DNA from: a virus
IMG/VR virus record: IMGVR_UViG_3300030450_002092
Location: 1-58,918 of that record
Strand: one strand, 5' to 3'
DNA: 58,918 nt
This document shows, in pieces, positions 35,064-51,258 of the stretch. Both the position numbers and the translations under genes were made by a program. Every line of letters starts with the position of its first letter. The first letter of the stretch is position 1. The notes under the pieces were generated by a model. The model was not told the origin of the DNA, searched no databases, and was given only the letters and a program-made list of their open reading frames with translations.

Positions 35064-35287
35064 TCTTTTAGTGTTTGTCTGATGTTAATACATTTTTCAT
35101 ATTCTTCTTCCTCTATGAAATAATCTAGCATGTTTAAAATAAAGTCTTTACTATATGGGGCAAAAGGATTATGAGCAAAGTAATAATCTTCCGACTCTAT
35201 AATATCTTCTTCAGCAGCATTCTCAAATAAAACGCTGTAAGAATTTCGCATAGCAATGTGTAATATTTCTTTGTCGCTTTTAGCCAT
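35030..35287 (-). CDS. Hypothetical acidic protein, 85 aa
   Basis: 85 residues, acidic helical protein (FENAAEEDIIESEDYYFAHN, then YFIEEEEYEKCINIRQTLKE). It overlaps the helicase start by 34 bases and the primase/helicase stop by one base. No motif recognised; probably a small partner of the replication enzymes around it. Confidence 0.6.
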   Translation of the reverse strand: MAKSDKEILHIAMRNSYSVLFENAAEEDIIESEDYYFAHNPFAPYSKDFILNMLDYFIEEEEYEKCINIRQTLKEWNSDPTRKKL

Positions 35288-37701
35288 TAAAAAGGGAGAT
35301 TAGGATTAGATGGAGTAGATTGTGTTTTATATATTATCCATCTGCCGTGCATATCTCTACCTTCTTCTGGTACTACACCTTCTCTAAAAACTCCATATGC
35401 AGTAAGCCACTTATTAAACCTCGTTCTTGAAATAGTCATTTTAGATTTAGGGGCGTAGTCTGGATTCTCTTCAATAAAATCATAATACAATTCTTGTTTA
35501 TATATTCGTTTATCTACTTGCAATTTAGTGTTCACTGTTTGTCCTTGTAACAAACCGCACCACTCTATAAATTCGTGTGATGTTTCTGCTGACAGCTGTC
35601 GAACTTCTAAATTTACAAATGAAGATTTTATAAGTCCTTCGTTTAGATGAAGCTGTAAACAATCCACCATATAATTATCAAAGATACACCATTCTGCATC
35701 GTCCCAATCTCCAAACATTAGCTTGTTAAATTCATCTAAAGGAGAGAAAGATTTATTGTAGTGTTGGTGTAATTCTATTTCCCATTTACGCCTTGCAAAA
35801 GAATTACCAGACCCTTTAATAGCATAGTTAGTGGTAATTGCTATCTTCGGAGAATTTTCAAATGGAATTTTAATTGCATCTTTATTTTTCTTTTCTAAAG
35901 TTAATCCTTCTGTAACAACAGAAAACAATCTTTCAAAATCAAAATATTTTTTTACATCATCAAAGCATAATATCTGTGTGTCAGCCGAAACTAATTGATA
36001 AGCAAAAGACCTCTCAAAGTTAAAAGATTTTCCATCTATAAATACCAACTTCTTCATATGGCCTAGTGCATTCATAAATAAACCTTTACCAGTTCCACCC
36101 TCTGGATTGTCCGATATAACTTCATCGTTTAAAATTACAGCTGGAGAAAAAGATAAGTTTTTATACCCATGCATTAAATAACCAATAGTACTTTCCATTG
36201 TTGATATACGTGATTGTTTCTGCCCGCATATGTTGGCAACGAACTGCTTGTAGTCGCAATCCTTTACTTTACAAATTGTAAAAATTCTATTGATGACTTG
36301 TTCGCGCCAGACATAACCGCCTAAATCTAAATAGTCTATAGGAACAACATCGTTTTTGGTTATTTTAACGGCACAATTTCTGTAGTATAAGTAGGCCTCA
36401 TCTTTAGTGTCTTCTATAAAATATACTTCAATGGTTGATAGTAAAGACAAAAACTCTTCTTTAAAAAATCTAGTGTGGTCAGCAAAATAATTATAGATAC
36501 TCATATCTTCTAACTTCAACAAAGTATCTAATACAAAATCTTTAATTTCTTTTTCTGATGTATGGTCTATAAGATTGTTTGATACTTTTACAAATACATA
36601 GTTGCGACTTCCTTCTGGGCAAAACTTGTAGTACCCGTGGTCTTCTAAAAATTGTTTAAATAGTATATGTACTATTTTAATAACACCCTTATTAGATTTA
36701 GTCCAAAAAATTTGATGCTTGTTCTCCTCATCTGCTTTTTCCAGCACAGAGTTTATTACCTCGGTATCAAATGAAGCATCTTCTAATTGACACCGAATTT
36801 CATTTTTTGGTACGCCTTGTTTGAGTTTGGTTTTTATATCACTTATCCTATCCTCATCTTCATAATACTTTGTTCCAAAGTTATGGGTATTACTATAAGC
36901 AGATTTGATAGTTCTTTTGATTTCTTCTAAATTAAAATCTTTATTAGAATACTGCCCTAATACATATGAAGCTAAACTTTCACTAATACCATAATCATTA
37001 AAAGCAGCTGCTAAAACATAGGCATGCTGATTTCTTTGTCCTTCATTCATCGGAAATTTTTTCTCCCACCATTTCACTAATATCTCTACTATTTTATTTT
37101 CATCAGTTATAGGTATGGTAACGGGGTCAATATGTTTCTTAACTTCTTTATACTCTACCTCTTCAATCTTATCCCACTCAGCACTATCATTATTAATATG
37201 AATTAAAGGGTCATAACTTTCGTAACAGACACGTGAGATATTTTTAGTTGTCTTGTCAAAATAATCCGAATTAAAATATTTATCTAGTGATTGAAAATAT
37301 CTTGTATGATTCTCTTTGTCCCGCGGGATTTTTATTAATACTTTTAATCCATTACCAGAGGGAGAAATAAAAACAGAAAAGACAAACTTATTTTTAGTAA
37401 GCATATCTTTATCTTTCAACATATCTTTTACCTTTCCGTAACCATCAAAGTCTAAACAAATTAAACCGCTATGTTCAATTAAACTGGTGTCTTGTCTTTT
37501 AGTAAACGTACCAGAAAAACAAACAGCTGGTAATAATTTTTTAATTTCATTTCTTTTGCTTTTATCTTTTTCTCTCCTAATTCTTTTGACTAAATCTTTG
37601 GAGGAGCCATTCTTAATTCTCTCTAAAATAGTGTAGGCATCGCGATGAAAAGGGGTTGTAGTTTCTTTTATGTTTTGGAATATTGTTATAGTGTGTGTCA
37701 T
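35287..37701 (-). CDS. Primase-SF3 helicase replication protein (VirE N/D5-like)
   Basis: 804 residues. The N-terminal part (about 15-165) resembles the VirE N-terminal/BT4734-like primase-type domain common in Bacteroidota elements, with LICLDFDGYG and SPSGNGLKVLIKI. A helical linker with a PriCT-like look follows (about 200-270). The C-terminal third is a superfamily 3 helicase: Walker A PEGGTGKG near 533, Walker B ILCFDDV near 577, and a conserved Asn-containing KIAITTNYAIKG. It should open the origin and prime synthesis for a host polymerase. Its start codon abuts the iteron array at 37704-37782. Confidence 0.85.
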   Translation of the reverse strand: MTHTITIFQNIKETTTPFHRDAYTILERIKNGSSKDLVKRIRREKDKSKRNEIKKLLPAVCFSGTFTKRQDTSLIEHSGLICLDFDGYGKVKDMLKDKDMLTKNKFVFSVFISPSGNGLKVLIKIPRDKENHTRYFQSLDKYFNSDYFDKTTKNISRVCYESYDPLIHINNDSAEWDKIEEVEYKEVKKHIDPVTIPITDENKIVEILVKWWEKKFPMNEGQRNQHAYVLAAAFNDYGISESLASYVLGQYSNKDFNLEEIKRTIKSAYSNTHNFGTKYYEDEDRISDIKTKLKQGVPKNEIRCQLEDASFDTEVINSVLEKADEENKHQIFWTKSNKGVIKIVHILFKQFLEDHGYYKFCPEGSRNYVFVKVSNNLIDHTSEKEIKDFVLDTLLKLEDMSIYNYFADHTRFFKEEFLSLLSTIEVYFIEDTKDEAYLYYRNCAVKITKNDVVPIDYLDLGGYVWREQVINRIFTICKVKDCDYKQFVANICGQKQSRISTMESTIGYLMHGYKNLSFSPAVILNDEVISDNPEGGTGKGLFMNALGHMKKLVFIDGKSFNFERSFAYQLVSADTQILCFDDVKKYFDFERLFSVVTEGLTLEKKNKDAIKIPFENSPKIAITTNYAIKGSGNSFARRKWEIELHQHYNKSFSPLDEFNKLMFGDWDDAEWCIFDNYMVDCLQLHLNEGLIKSSFVNLEVRQLSAETSHEFIEWCGLLQGQTVNTKLQVDKRIYKQELYYDFIEENPDYAPKSKMTISRTRFNKWLTAYGVFREGVVPEEGRDMHGRWIIYKTQSTPSNPNLPF

Positions 37702-43920: not shown

Positions 43921-43949
43921 AACAAAGCAGAGGTTAGCTAGTAACCTCT
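43921..43949 (-). terminator. Hairpin over the cyclotransferase stop codon
   Basis: 8-bp stem AGAGGTTA/TAACCTCT (43929-43936/43942-43949), 5-base loop. It includes the stop codon of the cyclotransferase gene and is followed on the - strand by CTTTGTTT. Probable weak terminator. Confidence 0.5.
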
Positions 43950-44629
43950 TGCTCTGAATACATTTCATTACACACACTGCAATGATATTTTTGATTGCTG
44001 ATTTCAGTTTCATCATAGTAAACTTCTTCAAAGCAAATGTTACAATACTTTGTATTGTCATCTTCTTTGTCTGCTATTGTTGACAATGAAGAGAATAAAT
44101 CCCTACGCTCGTGGTAACGAGTAGTAGGCTCGTAAGTGTACTGCTCATAGGTTGGCTTATCAGCGTATGAGTATCGCCTTGTACCAAAGCTAAATTTGGG
44201 TGTAATTGGAAAGCTTTTATGATACTTCATATTGGTTGATGAGATACTATCGTATCTATTCCAGTTATTGTTTATAAAGTATATCCAAGCATTTACTATC
44301 GTTCCATTGTTTAGCTTGATAGGTAGTTGCCTTCTGCGATAAAAATTCGGGTGTCCCTCTAGCGAATCAAGAGCAGAAAAGGTGTCATTGTTTACCTTAT
44401 ATACTTCGACTTCTACGTGGTGTCCACTTCCGCGTTTATCTAACAAGTAAGGCAGCCCGCTGATTACTAGCGGGTACCTATCTTTTGTCGTTCCTTTGTT
44501 TACAAATCGTTGGCCATACAATAATCTGTGATTGCCCCCGCCTTTCTTTAAAGTACCATACACTGCTACAACATTGTGCTGTAACACATTGGGTTTAGAA
44601 AACCAAACTCCATTGTGTTTTATCCACAT
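43934..44629 (-). CDS. Gamma-glutamylcyclotransferase-like protein with zinc ribbon
   Basis: 231 residues. The GGCT/AIG2 core starts with VAVYGTLKKGG (22-32), the substrate loop, and has the catalytic-type Glu91 in LDSLEGHPNFYRR. After a linker, a C-terminal zinc ribbon with two CxxC pairs (YCNICF and HCSVCNEMY) follows. The first 15 residues (MWIKHNGVWFSKPNV) actually resemble the end of a class II glutamine amidotransferase, and the frame is open up to that enzyme's TGA stop upstream. GGCT enzymes release 5-oxoproline from gamma-glutamyl amides. The substrate here is unknown; the neighbours suggest peptide amide metabolism. Confidence 0.75.
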   Translation of the reverse strand: MWIKHNGVWFSKPNVLQHNVVAVYGTLKKGGGNHRLLYGQRFVNKGTTKDRYPLVISGLPYLLDKRGSGHHVEVEVYKVNNDTFSALDSLEGHPNFYRRRQLPIKLNNGTIVNAWIYFINNNWNRYDSISSTNMKYHKSFPITPKFSFGTRRYSYADKPTYEQYTYEPTTRYHERRDLFSSLSTIADKEDDNTKYCNICFEEVYYDETEISNQKYHCSVCNEMYSEQEVTS

Positions 44630-44710
44630 TTCTTTGTTGTAGATTTCGTATTGTCGGTTGCGTTTGTTGTAAGTAACAAATCTAGAATCGTGCTGACCTA
44701 GTACTGCTCT

Positions 44711-45064
44711 TCATTGCTGCCTAGCAATACCGCCTAGTTCAATAGCAAGTTGCTTGCTATCACACATATCTTGTGTTCCATACCCGCGTATAGTTCCATT
44801 GTGCATAAGCAGTTCGTTACTATTATTACCGCATATAAATGGGTGGGTGTTTGCTTTGTTAATTTTCCCTTTAGTTGCTAATCTGAAATGAGCGATATAG
44901 GGTCTGTCTGTGTCTAGTACTTTCCATTCTTTAGACTGGTAGTATTCGACTTCATTGGTATCCAGAAAAATTACGCCTAGTCCGTGAGGATTGATGCGTG
45001 AAGAATTTTTAAGTATCTCTGGCGATACTTTTTTGTCTTTCGACTTTACAATAATTATACACAT
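44711..45064 (-). CDS. Class II glutamine amidotransferase-like protein, interrupted by TGA
   Basis: 117 residues with an N-terminal nucleophile hydrolase signature: Cys2 exposed after Met1, RINPHGLGVIFLD, AHFRLATKG (58-66), NTHPF (72-76) and MHNG (87-90). It stops at TGA (44711-44713), yet the same frame stays open and encodes SRFVTYNKRNRQYEIYNKE then WIKHNGVWFSKP, the expected C-terminal hairpin of this family, before entering the cyclotransferase. So the stop removes the enzyme's own C-terminus. Options: recent nonsense mutation, readthrough, or sequencing error. The reaction would be glutamine-dependent amide transfer or hydrolysis. Confidence 0.75.
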   Translation of the reverse strand: MCIIIVKSKDKKVSPEILKNSSRINPHGLGVIFLDTNEVEYYQSKEWKVLDTDRPYIAHFRLATKGKINKANTHPFICGNNSNELLMHNGTIRGYGTQDMCDSKQLAIELGGIARQQ

Positions 45065-45127
45065 AGTTTATTTGTTTGTGAGGTTTGTACTTCTAGTATT
45101 GTGTACGCTGACCTCTGATTATTTAGA

Positions 45128-45159
45128 CAAAGATAAGAAAACATTTAGACATAACCAAA
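45128..45159 (-). promoter_or_regulatory. Leftward promoter for amidotransferase operon
   Basis: On the - strand TTTG (45156-45159), 20-bp spacer with TATGTCTAAAT, then TATCTTTG (45128-45135), followed by TCTAAAT. It lies 64 bases upstream of the amidotransferase start. Near-copy of the promoter at 42422-42453. Confidence 0.8.
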
Positions 45160-45440
45160 CAATTTATGCGAAATTTTATTTCGTGTATTCTAGAAGACCG
45201 CTTCCAAATGTCTTCTTTGAATTTGTGTCTCGTGTTTTTTTTTGTGTCTCGTGTTTTTTTTTACAGCTCCTCCGCTTCCAGCTTCTTTGCTTCTGTATTT
45301 GTAAATCCCCTCTGCTTCTTTGCTTCCGCTCCCCATGCGTCTGCCATGCGTCTGCCATGCGTCTGCCAATCCCGCGGGATTAGCAAAGGAGGTTCGGCAA
45401 AAAAAATTCGGTTCGGTGAAAAAAAATTCGGTTCAAGGCA
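45136..45440. repeat. Repeat-rich, strand-asymmetric intergenic region
   Basis: About 300 bases between a terminator and a promoter with no convincing gene. It holds a 20-bp repeat TTTGTGTCTCGTG-T7 twice (from 45222 and 45241), three tandem 11-bp units ATGCGTCTGCC (45335-45367), a perfect 14-bp palindrome AATCCCGCGGGATT (45368-45381), two GCTTCTTTGCTTC elements, and two A-run/TTCGGTTC repeats. The + strand is pyrimidine-rich over most of it. A 60-codon - strand reading frame (45176-45358) is low-complexity and I do not accept it as a gene. A replication or regulatory site is possible. Confidence 0.55.
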
Positions 45441-45466
45441 AAAAAAAAGACCGCATAAAGCGGCCT
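45441..45466 (-). terminator. Intrinsic terminator (leftward)
   Basis: On the - strand AGGCCGC/GCGGTCT stem (one G.U pair), TTTAT loop and a run of at least eight T. It ends the transcript of the 231-aa gene, just downstream of palindrome copy 5. Confidence 0.85.
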
Positions 45467-45472
45467 CTCTTT

Positions 45473-45490
45473 TTGGTCGTGTACGACTAA
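45473..45490 (+). repeat. Dispersed palindrome copy 5, over a stop codon
   Basis: TTGGTCG-TGTA-CGACTAA. It contains the TAG stop of the gene at 45487-46182. Together with flanking bases it shares 23 identical bases (opposite strand) with the copy inside the terminase gene at 1330-1352. Confidence 0.75.
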
Positions 45491-46182
45491 TTTGTGTGAA
45501 CGTATCTCTGTTCAGTTGGGATTTTTATTTCCTCAACATTTACAAAAACTCTCTTGCTACATTGTGTAAGTCTGTATAAATGTTGATTCGAAATTATGCT
45601 GCTCCCTCTAGCCCTATTGTAGTCATAAAGCGTTTTACCATTTACCCATTTTCCAGAATCAGCATAAAAGGTTAGGGCCATTGCACTTAATCTATAATAT
45701 TTTATGATATAAATTAAAAAATCTCTATCCCTCTCATCGTATCTTATTCTAGCGTGCATAAGGCGGTTAGCTTGTCTAATAGCATTGTCAATTAAGGAGT
45801 AAACCTTTTCCACAGTATGAATTTTAGGCCAGTTTAATTCTAAAAATTCTAAACTAGTGTTAATTCCGAATCGCAATTCGTTGTGTTCTGTAGGTGTGAA
45901 AAGCATTTCTATTCCTTTAAATTGCGCTTTGTTTAGCCTTAAACTTCGGCTCCCCCACGTATCTCTCGCTAAAGGAAACGAAAGTCCTTCTGCGGCCTCT
46001 AAACCATTGTTGCTACGCCTTTGACTATCAGATAAAGTTTTAACAAATTTACATCTTAACTTTTGTTCGTTGTTTGGTGTAATTTGTTGAAAGTAAAATG
46101 AATTCAAAACTTCTTGTAAGTTTCTTCTTTGCGCGCCAGTTAATTTAATACTGGTTAACATTTTGTTTGTGTGTGTACTCAT
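45487..46182 (-). CDS. Hypothetical protein, 231 aa
   Basis: 231 residues; an in-frame ATG at 46161 (MLTSIKLTGAQRRNLQEV) is an alternative start. Central and C-terminal parts are helical and basic (LIDNAIRQANRLMHARIRYD, RDFLIYIIKYYRLSAMAL). The end KRVFVNVEEIKI ... QRYVHTN resembles a degenerate fragment at 48290-48391 and the start resembles the 174-aa protein at 43.4 kb, so it belongs to a small family in this genome. A hammerhead-like element lies just upstream (46207-46257). Function unknown. Confidence 0.6.
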   Translation of the reverse strand: MSTHTNKMLTSIKLTGAQRRNLQEVLNSFYFQQITPNNEQKLRCKFVKTLSDSQRRSNNGLEAAEGLSFPLARDTWGSRSLRLNKAQFKGIEMLFTPTEHNELRFGINTSLEFLELNWPKIHTVEKVYSLIDNAIRQANRLMHARIRYDERDRDFLIYIIKYYRLSAMALTFYADSGKWVNGKTLYDYNRARGSSIISNQHLYRLTQCSKRVFVNVEEIKIPTEQRYVHTN

Positions 46183-46206
46183 AATATTTGTTTTTAAATT
46201 GTTTAA

Positions 46207-46257
46207 TCTGTTTCATCGTTTTCGAATCATCAGGCACGACATTCATCGCACTACAGA
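46207..46257 (-). ncRNA. Hammerhead ribozyme candidate, type III
   Basis: Read on the - strand: stem III UCUGU (46257-46253), A17 at 46252 (predicted cleavage after it), stem I GUGCGA/UCGUGC with loop UGAAUG, core CUGAUGA (46233-46227), stem II UCG/CGA with an AAAA loop, core GAA (46214-46212), then ACAGA (46211-46207) closing stem III with the required A15.1-U16.1 pair. All conserved core bases are present. The unusual points are a U-U mismatch at 10.1/11.1, A rather than C at position 17, and two wobble pairs in stem I. It lies between the amidoligase stop and the next gene. Confidence 0.65.
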
Positions 46258-46289
46258 GGGCAGTTTATACAGCTGCCCAGCTGTGTCAA

Positions 46290-47390
46290 TCATCTTTTGC
46301 GTGCAAAAGAGATTTCCCCTCGTTTCCACAATCGAAACGCTGTCGGTGTTGTTATCGATTTCACAACCGCTAACTCATCGCGGTGCATTCTAGCTGGATT
46401 TTGGTATCTGTTCCAAATAAAAGGCAATACAACGTGGTTAATTTTGTTAGTCATTAACATTTTTCTAAAGTGTTTTGATAACTCAATTAACATTTCAACC
46501 TTGCCCTCATCGTTGTTATACATCGATAATAAAGTTGGTTTTAACTTCTTAATCAATTTTGCATAACTCCCTCTATCATTAACAGCAAAATCAACAATAA
46601 TTTGCATTAATTTATATCTGTTAATCATTTGTTTTACGCTAGTAAATCGGCTCCATAATCTAAACTCCAGTAAACCTAATCTTGATTTCTCAAATATTGG
46701 CTGGTATTTTGTACCTCTAGCAGCGTTGATATGGTCTGATATAGATTCGCTAGTTGTTCTCGCTGTAACGTTATTGCAGCAAAACTGGTTAGCTAATCTC
46801 TTGCGGTTAAGAGCGTAAATGATTGCGTAATAAGGCCTCATCAGTTCATTTAATTCACTACTGGTATGATTTGCGCTAGCAATAGTCATATGGCCGCCAC
46901 ATCTGTAAGACCCATAGTCATTCATTTCATCTGACTGGCTGTAATTTTCATCGATTAAATACTTTGCTTTATGCATTAAATCAAATATTTTATTACGCCA
47001 TTTGCTCATTGGGATAAGTGGTAAAATATTAGTGATGGCTTCAAGTCCGCAGCTCCCATCTCTTTCAATCCCTTTCATTAATTGACAAAAATAATTCAAT
47101 TCGCTACCAGTTAAAACATCTCTAGAAATTCTCGATTTCTCTACTTCCATTCCGATAGTAAATTTTGATTTGTAAACAAACTCAGAAGATTCTAATACTC
47201 TGGTTATGTTGTTTGCTCTTTGTTTCTTTGTCATTCCAGTTAAATCAACCTCAAATTTTGTATTTGCGTAGTCCTCTGGATTCGGGCTACATTGATAAGG
47301 CTGTACAACAATTCTAGAACGCTGATTGCCATTTGAATTGGCCGCCAGCTGCTCTAGTTTGTCATACTTTTTTCCGATTAAATTTTTCAT
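46290..47390 (-). CDS. Amidoligase (COOH-NH2 ligase family)
   Basis: 366 residues with the phage-type amidoligase pattern: TIGMEVE (78-84), ERDGSCGLE (109-117), CGGHMTIAS (164-172) and LEFRLW (241-246), the order seen in the glutamine synthetase/GCS-like amidoligase_2 family. Such enzymes use ATP to join a carboxylate to an amine, forming amide or peptide bonds. In other phages this family is reported beside GGCT and class II amidotransferase genes, as here. The substrate (cell wall peptide, host protein or small metabolite) cannot be told. The 3' end forms an 8-bp inverted repeat TCTTTTGC/GCAAAAGA (46293-46310). Confidence 0.75.
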   Translation of the reverse strand: MKNLIGKKYDKLEQLAANSNGNQRSRIVVQPYQCSPNPEDYANTKFEVDLTGMTKKQRANNITRVLESSEFVYKSKFTIGMEVEKSRISRDVLTGSELNYFCQLMKGIERDGSCGLEAITNILPLIPMSKWRNKIFDLMHKAKYLIDENYSQSDEMNDYGSYRCGGHMTIASANHTSSELNELMRPYYAIIYALNRKRLANQFCCNNVTARTTSESISDHINAARGTKYQPIFEKSRLGLLEFRLWSRFTSVKQMINRYKLMQIIVDFAVNDRGSYAKLIKKLKPTLLSMYNNDEGKVEMLIELSKHFRKMLMTNKINHVVLPFIWNRYQNPARMHRDELAVVKSITTPTAFRLWKRGEISFARKR

Positions 47391-49203: not shown

Positions 49204-49590
49204 ATGACATACAATAAAAAAGAATTTTTAGAAATGTTAGCGGACTTAAGTTTGACCGAACAAGAGCTATCAGACATAGCCAAGAGTGGAGAAGTAGTTA
49301 AGTTTAAAACCTTAACAGTAAAGAGAAAAAAATCTAAAATACACGGCTACGGAATGTTTGCTCAAGTTGATTTGGAGAAAGGGGACATTATAGGATTAGC
49401 CTCCGTCAATGCAATACATAAAACTTATTTAGGTAGATATACCAATCACTCACATAGTCCTAACATTGATTTTTTATATTTACAGAATTATGATTTAATA
49501 GGCGTGGCCAAGCAACCTATTAATAAAGGAGAAGAATTGTTAGTAGATTATAGAAATCATATTTTAACTCCACAATTTTATAAAATATAA
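49204..49590 (+). CDS. SET-domain protein (lysine methyltransferase-like)
   Basis: 128 residues. Residues about 36-118 contain the SET signatures: KIHGYGMFAQVDLEKGDIIG (45-64), RYTNHSHSPN (78-87) and KGEELLVDY (108-116), with the catalytic-type Tyr in the last motif. The AdoMet-binding N-H-S motif is kept. It probably methylates a lysine of a host or phage protein. It follows iteron array B and is read together with the chaperonin genes downstream. The N-terminal 30 residues are a short helical extension. Confidence 0.8.
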   Translation: MTYNKKEFLEMLADLSLTEQELSDIAKSGEVVKFKTLTVKRKKSKIHGYGMFAQVDLEKGDIIGLASVNAIHKTYLGRYTNHSHSPNIDFLYLQNYDLIGVAKQPINKGEELLVDYRNHILTPQFYKI

Positions 49591-49626: not shown

Positions 49627-51258
49627 ATGAACCCACAAGCAGGAGGCTACACGCCCAAAGACCTGAGATTTGGAGAGTCAGGCAGAACATCACTAATTAA
49701 CGGAATCACTCAAATAGCTAATGCAGTTAAATCTACATTAGGCCCAAGAGGACATACAGTATTAATTGAGTCACCCAATGTTTCAAAAGGAATGACTGTA
49801 ACCAAAGATGGAGTTACTGTTGCACGAGCAGTAAACTTATTACACCCCGTAGAAAATTTAGCAGTAACCATGATGAAGCAAGCGGCAAACAATACAGCCA
49901 CCTCAGCTGGGGATGGGACTACCACGGCAATCGTGTTAACCGAAGCGTTAGTTAAAGCGGGAAATGAATTAATTAAAGATTCACATAATCGAACTGAAAT
50001 ACTCCGAGCATTAAATAATGAGTTAGACAATATAGTGTCTGAGTTAAAAAAGAATTCTAAACCTATAACCAAACAACGATTAAAAGACGTAGCAGTTATT
50101 TCCGCTAATGGAGACAAAGAGATTGGTTCTATTATTTCAAACACATACAATGAGGTAGGTAAAAACGGAATCGTAACGGTTGAACGTTCCCAGACTAGCG
50201 ATACGTACAATGAGGTAACTACAGGAATTAAAATAGAGAAGGGAATGAACTCTCCTTTATTTATTAATGACCAAAAGAAAGATGAGTGTATACTTGAGGA
50301 TGTACATATATTAGTATGTGACAACACGGTGGAGAACATACTAAACATAGAGAATATTTTAAAACCTATAATTCAACAAAACAAAAGATTATTATTAATC
50401 TGCCCTGTAAGCGAAAATGTATTAAATACTTTAGCAGCTAATGTGATTAAGAAAAAACTAAATGTGTGTCAAATCTCTCCACCACAGTTTGGATATAAAC
50501 AAAGAGAGCTTATGCAAGACATTGCTGTTTCAGTTAATGCTACATATTTTTCTGAAAAGACTGGTGATGATTTAAGCCTTATAACTTTTAATGACTTAGG
50601 TCATGCTTCTAAGGTGATAGTTGGAAGCGACTCTACAGTCATTATTAAAGACCCTGAAGTTACTGATGCTGTAGTAGAGGAAAGAGTAAAACAACTGTGG
50701 GACAGTCATAAGTTAGCGACAAAAAAAGCAGATAAAGATTTTATCTTGTCTCGAATAGCATCTTTAACTGGGGGCATCGGTGTAATACACGTAGGAGGTC
50801 AAACAGATTTAGAACAAAAAGAATTATATGATAGAGTAGATGATGCAGTATGTGCGGTTCGCTCTGCATTAACAGAAGGTATATTACCAGGCGGAGGAAC
50901 AGTATTATATAATATAGCAAAGATGTATGCTAATAAATCTAATGACCTTGACCAAAAAAATATTTCTAAAAAAATTGCTTACGCAATTTTAGGGGACGCT
51001 TTGAAAGCACCCCTGGAACAGATACTAGATAATGCTGGGTTAAAAGCCGAAGAAATATATGAAGGACTGTTAGACCCTAGGCACGGGTATGATGTTAAGA
51101 ACGAAAGGTATGGGGATTTATTAGAGCTTGGAGTTATAGACCCTCTTAAGGTTACTAAACATGCAATTAAAAATGCTGTATCAGTAGCCAACACAATTTT
51201 AAGTACTAATGCTATAATAACAATGGCAAGAACATATGAAGCAAATGCAACCACTTAA
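49627..51258 (+). CDS. groEL: Chaperonin GroEL (Hsp60)
   Basis: 543 residues, close to full length for a bacterial GroEL. Key features are present: TLGPRGHTV (38-45), TKDGVTVA (59-66), nucleotide loop AGDGTTTA (94-101), and VDDAVCAVRSALTEGILPGGG near 410-430 with the ATP-hydrolysis Asp. The C-terminal GGM tail is missing; the protein ends TYEANATT. It should form the double-ring folding chamber, possibly for the very large virion proteins. It is divergent from host-type sequences by eye, so a recent host pickup is unlikely. The groES start overlaps its end by 23 bases. Confidence 0.92.
   Translation: MNPQAGGYTPKDLRFGESGRTSLINGITQIANAVKSTLGPRGHTVLIESPNVSKGMTVTKDGVTVARAVNLLHPVENLAVTMMKQAANNTATSAGDGTTTAIVLTEALVKAGNELIKDSHNRTEILRALNNELDNIVSELKKNSKPITKQRLKDVAVISANGDKEIGSIISNTYNEVGKNGIVTVERSQTSDTYNEVTTGIKIEKGMNSPLFINDQKKDECILEDVHILVCDNTVENILNIENILKPIIQQNKRLLLICPVSENVLNTLAANVIKKKLNVCQISPPQFGYKQRELMQDIAVSVNATYFSEKTGDDLSLITFNDLGHASKVIVGSDSTVIIKDPEVTDAVVEERVKQLWDSHKLATKKADKDFILSRIASLTGGIGVIHVGGQTDLEQKELYDRVDDAVCAVRSALTEGILPGGGTVLYNIAKMYANKSNDLDQKNISKKIAYAILGDALKAPLEQILDNAGLKAEEIYEGLLDPRHGYDVKNERYGDLLELGVIDPLKVTKHAIKNAVSVANTILSTNAIITMARTYEANATT

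What the first reader, a model, noticed from the sequence alone, without database searches (positions are those of the whole stretch)
43934..47390. Peptide-amide cassette: amidoligase, class II amidotransferase and GGCT with zinc ribbon
Three enzyme families that make, transfer or open gamma-glutamyl/amide bonds lie within 3.5 kb on the same strand, separated by an uncharacterised 231-aa gene, a ribozyme candidate and a repeat-rich region. Co-occurrence of these families in phages has been noted in comparative genomics and proposed to modify peptides or wall components. The GGCT with a fused zinc ribbon is an unusual detail.
Basis: partly seen in the sequence, partly recalled or inferred. Interest (0 to 1): 0.7.

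Follow-up and report, generated by a model that had tools for sequence, protein, structure and literature searches.

The report
Conserved UGA readthrough inside phage enzyme
In this bacterial virus two enzyme genes that look separate are really one gene interrupted by a single stop codon, kept at the same place by a whole group of related viruses where every other relative has tryptophan, so the ribosome is probably meant to read through it.

Summary
The three enzyme families are present and linked, but the anatomy was misread. The "amidotransferase" (45064-44711) and the "GGCT with zinc ribbon" (44629-43934) are one 376-codon frame (45064-43934, minus strand) with a single in-frame TGA at codon 118 (44713-44711). 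Among 112 distinct homologous genes the codon is TGG in 99 and TGA in 13. The 13 form one clade (57-100% amino-acid identity, synonymous sites near saturation) and no gene has any other internal stop. The frame after TGA is under purifying selection and has no shared start codon. A 20-nt element 9 nt after the TGA, CTAGGTCARCACGATTCTAG, occurs in 20 IMG/VR contigs, all in this gene behind TGA. Its hairpin is complete in 13/13 TGA genes and 0/99 TGG genes. Elsewhere in these phages Trp is TGG and TGA is a normal stop; no suppressor tRNA was found. Best reading: programmed UGA readthrough inserting Trp. It gives a GATase-GGACT-zinc-ribbon fusion that works with an upstream divergent amidoligase (glutamine-synthetase/GCS2-like fold), present in 68 of 69 testable loci. 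The cassette is of a known kind; this one-codon recoding is, as far as I could find, undescribed. Readthrough itself was not measured.

The parts
43934..45064 (-). GATase (class II) - GGACT - zinc-ribbon fusion, 376 codons with one in-frame TGA
   Evidence: single uninterrupted CDS in MW202828 and C75C1
44711..44713 (-). in-frame TGA (codon 118) at a position that is TGG (Trp) in all 99 non-TGA relatives
44682..44701 (-). conserved element CTAGGTCAGCACGATTCTAG downstream of the TGA; predicted 7-bp hairpin with one bulged U; candidate readthrough stimulator
44714..45064 (-). N-terminal part of the Ntn glutaminase (GATase) domain; the product if UGA terminates (117 aa, lacks the last helix and strands)
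44255..44569 (-). GGACT / gamma-glutamylamine cyclotransferase domain (residues 166-270)
43967..44044 (-). C-terminal zinc ribbon, CxxC...CxxC (Cys341 to Cys365)
   Evidence: Cys341, 344, 362 and 365 invariant in 34 sequences
45081..45115 (-). 5' leader hairpin of the fusion mRNA with strong covariation across 26 distinct sequences
45128..45159 (-). Bacteroidota-type promoter TTTGG-N19-TATCTTTG
   Evidence: direct reading; conserved in relatives
46290..47390 (-). divergent amidoligase of the glutamine-synthetase / GCS2 (COOH-NH2 ligase) superfamily
45487..46182 (-). uncharacterised 231-aa gene, in a subset of the clade only (5 loci); not part of the conserved cassette

Best explanation
The locus encodes a two-protein amide-bond cassette: an amidoligase and a GATase-GGACT-zinc-ribbon fusion. 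Expression of the fusion is gated by a leaky UGA. Shown by sequence: one frame, one UGA at an invariant Trp position, conserved in a clade, with a clade-specific 3' element that can form a hairpin. Inferred: most ribosomes stop at UGA (117-aa product lacking the end of the GATase fold, probably unstable), while a fraction reads UGA as Trp with the host's near-cognate tRNA-Trp, helped by the 3' element, and makes the full enzyme. Inferred from the families: the amidoligase joins a carboxylate, probably of glutamate, to an amine; the GATase domain supplies ammonia from glutamine; the GGACT domain removes a gamma-glutamyl group as 5-oxoproline. The substrate is unknown.
For: TGA is in frame and alone, and two outgroup genes have TGG there in an uninterrupted CDS. 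112 distinct genes: 99 TGG, 13 TGA, no other internal stop. TGA is one clade on a tree built without the site: single change, shuffled mean 10.6, clade length 1.6 aa changes per site (node support only 70). The frame after TGA is under purifying selection: pN/pS mostly 0.08-0.33 (range 0.03-0.43) in codons 119-160, with dS often above 1 in the gene. No start codon is shared downstream. Codons 118-128 are the most codon-conserved window in the TGA clade (0.94 against a mean of 0.60, rank 1 of 301) but ordinary in most TGG groups. The 20-nt element occurs in 20 contigs, 20 of 20 behind TGA in this gene and nowhere else in IMG/VR. The hairpin is complete in 13/13 TGA and 0/99 TGG genes. Elsewhere in the clade 389 window Trp positions are matched by Trp, and a stop replaces Trp only at this site. 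No suppressor tRNA was found.
Against: No protein, ribosome-profiling or reporter data. The hairpin is not unusually stable for its composition (z about -0.4), and its pairs never vary inside the clade, so covariation cannot test it. Codon conservation at this place has permutation p 0.0014 for the fixed place but 0.12 for any place in the gene. All TGA cases descend from one event, and a degenerate search found no independent one (that pattern was strict). One TGG subgroup also shows raised codon conservation here.
Confidence: 0.77

Rival explanations
1. Split gene: the GATase fragment ends at UGA and the GGACT-zinc-ribbon part is made as a separate protein from an internal start or by termination-reinitiation.
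For: ATG146 in the window gives a 231-aa ORF; most members carry an in-frame GTG or TTG near codon 160-168; ATG overlaps the TGA (ATGA) in most members.
Against: No start codon is common to the clade: codon 146 is ATG, AAG, TTG, TTA or CTT, and the start sets differ. The overlapping ATG opens a 10-codon frame closed by TAG and is CTG in L022. Codons 119-160 are under protein-level purifying selection, which a start at 160 would not explain. The GATase fold would be cut in two.
Confidence: 0.12
2. The UGA is read as selenocysteine, with the downstream hairpin acting as a bacterial SECIS.
For: A hairpin with a bulged U lies 9 nt after the UGA and is found only with TGA.
Against: All 99 other relatives have Trp, not Cys, at the site. 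The site is in a helix, not a known active-site residue. No Rfam SECIS family matched in the region. The bulge is on the 3' strand, the opposite of E. coli fdhF (own knowledge).
Confidence: 0.03
3. The phages read UGA as Trp in general (code 4, or a phage suppressor tRNA), as some crAss-like phages do.
For: Trp-for-TGA reassignment and suppressor tRNAs are known in crAss-like phages (PMC7886860).
Against: 193 TGG codons against one TGA at a Trp position in the window's genes; six other genes end in TGA, three of them in ATGA overlaps. Across 48 genes and 48,384 aligned residues of the clade, stops opposite Trp occur only here. No tRNA in the 58.9-kb window or in a 51-kb relative; only tRNA-Met in one subclade.
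Confidence: 0.04
4. A nonsense mutation or sequencing error in a decaying gene.
For: A TGG to TGA transition is a common mutation.
Against: Same codon in 13 distinct sequences and in 20 contigs from separate IMG datasets; no second stop in any; catalytic residues invariant; low pN/pS on both sides.
Confidence: 0.02

Closest known systems
UGA readthrough of the phage Q-beta coat gene
   Same: In-frame UGA read through to make a C-terminally extended protein. Q-beta is where in-frame stop readthrough was first found (PMC8310308); UGA leakage in enteric bacteria inserts Trp (PMC7918605).
   Different: Q-beta is an RNA phage and a structural gene, where UGA lies between a complete protein and an extension. 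Here UGA interrupts a catalytic domain of a metabolic enzyme in a dsDNA phage, at a position that is Trp in all relatives.
TGA-to-Trp recoded crAss-like phages (code 4)
   Same: dsDNA phages of Bacteroidota with TGA at Trp positions (PMC7886860).
   Different: Those recode many genes, often with suppressor tRNAs. Here one codon in one gene is affected and TGA is otherwise a stop.
Bacterial genes with conserved orthologous in-frame stops (PMC7918605)
   Same: Conserved internal stop with low dN/dS.
   Different: Here there is a strict Trp correspondence in 99 relatives and a clade-specific 3' element.
Amidoligase / class II GATase / GGCT set of LUZ24-like and related phages (PMC3890496)
   Same: Same enzyme families in neighbouring genes.
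   Different: Here GATase and GGACT are fused and carry a zinc ribbon, no ATP-grasp gene was seen beside them, and the amidoligase is too divergent for PF12224.

Membership tests
Programmed stop-codon readthrough | single in-frame stop conserved among relatives that are otherwise diverged | tested here: met
   13 distinct TGA genes, 57-100% identity, dS near saturation
Programmed stop-codon readthrough | downstream frame under protein-level selection without its own conserved start | tested here: met
Programmed stop-codon readthrough | cis-acting stimulatory signal | tested here: inconclusive
   clade-specific conserved 20-nt element and hairpin, but not unusually stable and function not tested
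Programmed stop-codon readthrough | readthrough protein demonstrated | not testable with these tools
   needs a reporter or mass spectrometry
TGA-reassigned phages (code 4) | TGA used for Trp across genes | tested here: not met
TGA-reassigned phages (code 4) | suppressor tRNA (anticodon UCA) in the phage | tested here: not met
   records may be incomplete
Selenoprotein | Cys in homologues lacking the UGA | tested here: not met
   Trp in 99 of 99
Selenoprotein | SECIS element | tested here: inconclusive
   hairpin present but no Rfam SECIS match
GGACT / AIG2 gamma-glutamyl(amine) cyclotransferase (PF06094) | profile match above cut-off and YGTL...LExxP..Y signature | tested here: met
   84.6 bits against 22.8; mouse and human GGACT are the best solved relatives
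Class II glutamine amidotransferase | N-terminal Cys nucleophile, glutaminase fold, profile match | tested here: met
   Met1-Cys2 invariant; PF13230 25.5 against 23; GlmS/GFAT glutaminase matches
Amidoligase_2 (PF12224) | profile match above cut-off | tested here: not met
   no match for P0002 or its MW202828 and L010 homologues
COOH-NH2 ligase superfamily (glutamine synthetase / GCS2 fold) | fold and conserved acidic, His and Arg positions | tested here: met
   the rows shown by both searches are glutamine synthetases, GCS2-type ligases and related ligases, best Z 9.5; E82, E84, E117, H167, E242 and R244 invariant in 51 sequences

The most novel reading that the evidence does not exclude
A regulated translational gate. 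The UGA with its 3' element and the covarying 5' leader hairpin, which shares AGGUCAGC with the element, form one autoregulatory circuit, for example bound by the fusion's own zinc ribbon or sensing release factor 2 or charged tRNA-Trp, so that the phage makes the full enzyme only under certain conditions. This would be a previously unseen form of recoding control in tailed phages.
Probability: 0.15. Interest if true: 0.82.

Novelty: new variant of a known kind. Interest (0 to 1): 0.62.

Why it matters
Programmed readthrough is rarely documented in dsDNA phages, and recoding in phages is usually discussed as whole-genome code change with suppressor tRNAs. Here one codon in one metabolic gene is recoded while the rest of the genome obeys the standard code, with about 100 unrecoded relatives as a natural control and a candidate 3' signal only 20 nt long. 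It can be tested directly with a small reporter. It also warns that gene callers split such genes: the window's two ORFs would be annotated as separate truncated proteins.

Tried and rejected
Profile comparison of the P0002 alignment with the C75C1 amidoligase gave no significant score, although the motifs line up. The Rfam search at gathering score found nothing in the window. A degenerate pattern for independent TGA events in other relatives found none; a second collection of 80 relatives was all TGG. MFE z-scores do not support an unusually stable hairpin after the UGA. In-frame stops opposite Trp at 36788, 37028, 37307 and 37646 in a six-frame comparison lie within the minus-strand gene 35287-37701 and are taken as antisense shadows, because none recur when only the listed genes are used. 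Stop-hopping was considered and dropped: no matching landing codon after the UGA. Host assignment failed: only one TGG relative lies in a MAG contig, labelled Cytophagales, besides weak hits to the GATase part in Methylococcaceae.

Full report
What is there. On the minus strand, 47390-46290 encodes a 366-aa protein. An uncharacterised 231-aa gene follows at 46182-45487. Then come a GATase ORF (45064-44711, 117 aa) and a GGCT ORF (44629-43934, 231 aa). Reading the GATase frame beyond its stop gives IARQQ-TGA-RAVLGQHDSRFVTYNKRNRQYEIYNKEMWIKHNGVWFSKPN... straight into the GGCT domain with no further stop. The two ORFs are therefore one 376-codon frame with one internal TGA at 44713-44711.

The TGA stands for tryptophan. 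Two phages in the annotated collection, MW202828 and C75C1, encode the same fusion without interruption, and both have TGG exactly where the window has TGA. Across 80 IMG/VR relatives and 80 more, 112 distinct gene sequences have TGG in 99 and TGA in 13 at this column. No gene has any other internal stop. A tree built without the site and the following element puts all TGA genes in one group (one change, shuffled mean 10.6; node support 70) with a TGG group as sister.

The TGA is maintained, not decaying. Within the clade proteins differ by up to 43%, and synonymous divergence often exceeds 1. Yet the TGA is invariant, both sides of the frame have low pN/pS (0.03-0.43 in codons 119-160, mostly under 0.33), and the invariant residues of the GATase and GGACT domains and the four ribbon cysteines are unchanged. 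The contigs come from separate IMG datasets, so it is not an assembly error.

Not a general code change. In the window 193 Trp codons are TGG, and six other genes end in TGA, three in ATGA overlaps. Comparing 48 window genes with other members of the clade (48,384 aligned residues), stops opposite Trp occur only at this site. No tRNA gene lies in the window or in a 51-kb relative; three contigs carry a tRNA-Met. The window has no Shine-Dalgarno-like sequence at 36 gene starts and has a TTTG/TAnnTTTG promoter before the fusion, which fits a Bacteroidota host.

Not a separate downstream gene. No start codon after the TGA is shared by the clade. The stretch between the TGA and the GGACT domain is conserved as protein and completes the GATase fold: in the AlphaFold model Trp118 sits in helix 115-122, followed by the last strands of the domain.

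A candidate signal. Downstream of the TGA the clade shares CTAGGTCARCACGATTCTAG. A scan of all IMG/VR contigs finds it in 20 contigs, always in this gene and always with the first base of TGA 12 nt before its own first base. Codons 118-128 have the highest codon conservation of the gene in the TGA clade (0.94, mean 0.60, rank 1 of 301), while most TGG groups are at their average there. The predicted hairpin, CUAGG-UC / GA-U-UCUAG, pairs fully in 13 of 13 TGA genes and 0 of 99 TGG genes. The sister group already has CTAGGT but lacks the 3' arm. The hairpin's energy is not remarkable, and the codon-conservation permutation gives p 0.0014 at this place but 0.12 anywhere in the gene, so a role in readthrough is inferred, not shown.

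The enzymes. The fusion is a class II glutaminase (GlmS/GFAT type), a GGACT domain closest to mammalian gamma-glutamylamine cyclotransferase, and a zinc ribbon. The 366-aa protein has no Pfam hit, but its confident model matches the glutamine synthetase / GCS2 superfamily, and its relatives keep E-x-E, E, H and E-x-R positions. It is present upstream in 68 of 69 testable loci, while the genes between the two vary. By family knowledge a gamma-glutamyl-amine intermediate is the most likely chemistry; the substrate is unknown.

A structured leader. The fusion mRNA has a 5' hairpin with strong covariation in 26 distinct sequences: 97.9% of cells paired against 66.7% shuffled, covariation score 0.712 against 0.19. 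It shares AGGTCAGC with the element after the TGA. That shared 8-mer is weak evidence on its own.

Literature. In the open-access library I found phage amidoligase/GATase/ATP-grasp sets (PMC3890496), whole-genome TGA recoding in crAss-like phages (PMC7886860), conserved in-frame stops in bacterial genes in general (PMC7918605) and readthrough in Q-beta (PMC8310308), but no report of a conserved readthrough codon in this gene family. Subscription journals were not searchable.

Verdict. The cassette is a new member of a known kind. The conserved one-codon UGA recoding inside it is a new variant of a known process (stop-codon readthrough), well supported by comparison and not yet by experiment.

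Noticed in passing
46205-46259 (-); L009 and L019 at the same place after the amidoligase gene: Hammerhead type III ribozyme candidate (23.2 bits, below the gathering score) between the amidoligase and the 231-aa gene. Relatives have better-formed copies with compensatory stem changes. It was not seen in L021, L022 and L028, which also lack the 231-aa gene, so ribozyme plus gene look like one mobile insertion.
   Followed up: partly
45081-45115 (-) and relatives in alignment A7: Covarying 5' leader hairpin upstream of the GATase-GGACT gene in both TGA and TGG phages.
   Followed up: partly
49204-49590 (+): Small SET-domain protein (PF00856, E 2e-10) next to a phage GroEL gene.
   Followed up: no
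49627-51258 (+): Phage-encoded GroEL homologue; also in MW202828 and L010/L011, with GroES-sized ORFs beside it.
   Followed up: no
L022 6110-6183 and L023/L024: tRNA-Met (CAT) gene in one subclade of the TGA phages only.
   Followed up: no
45430-45486 (-): Terminator-like hairpin with a T run after the 231-aa gene; in L021 and L022 a similar hairpin directly follows the amidoligase, consistent with insertion of the 231-aa unit before it.
   Followed up: partly
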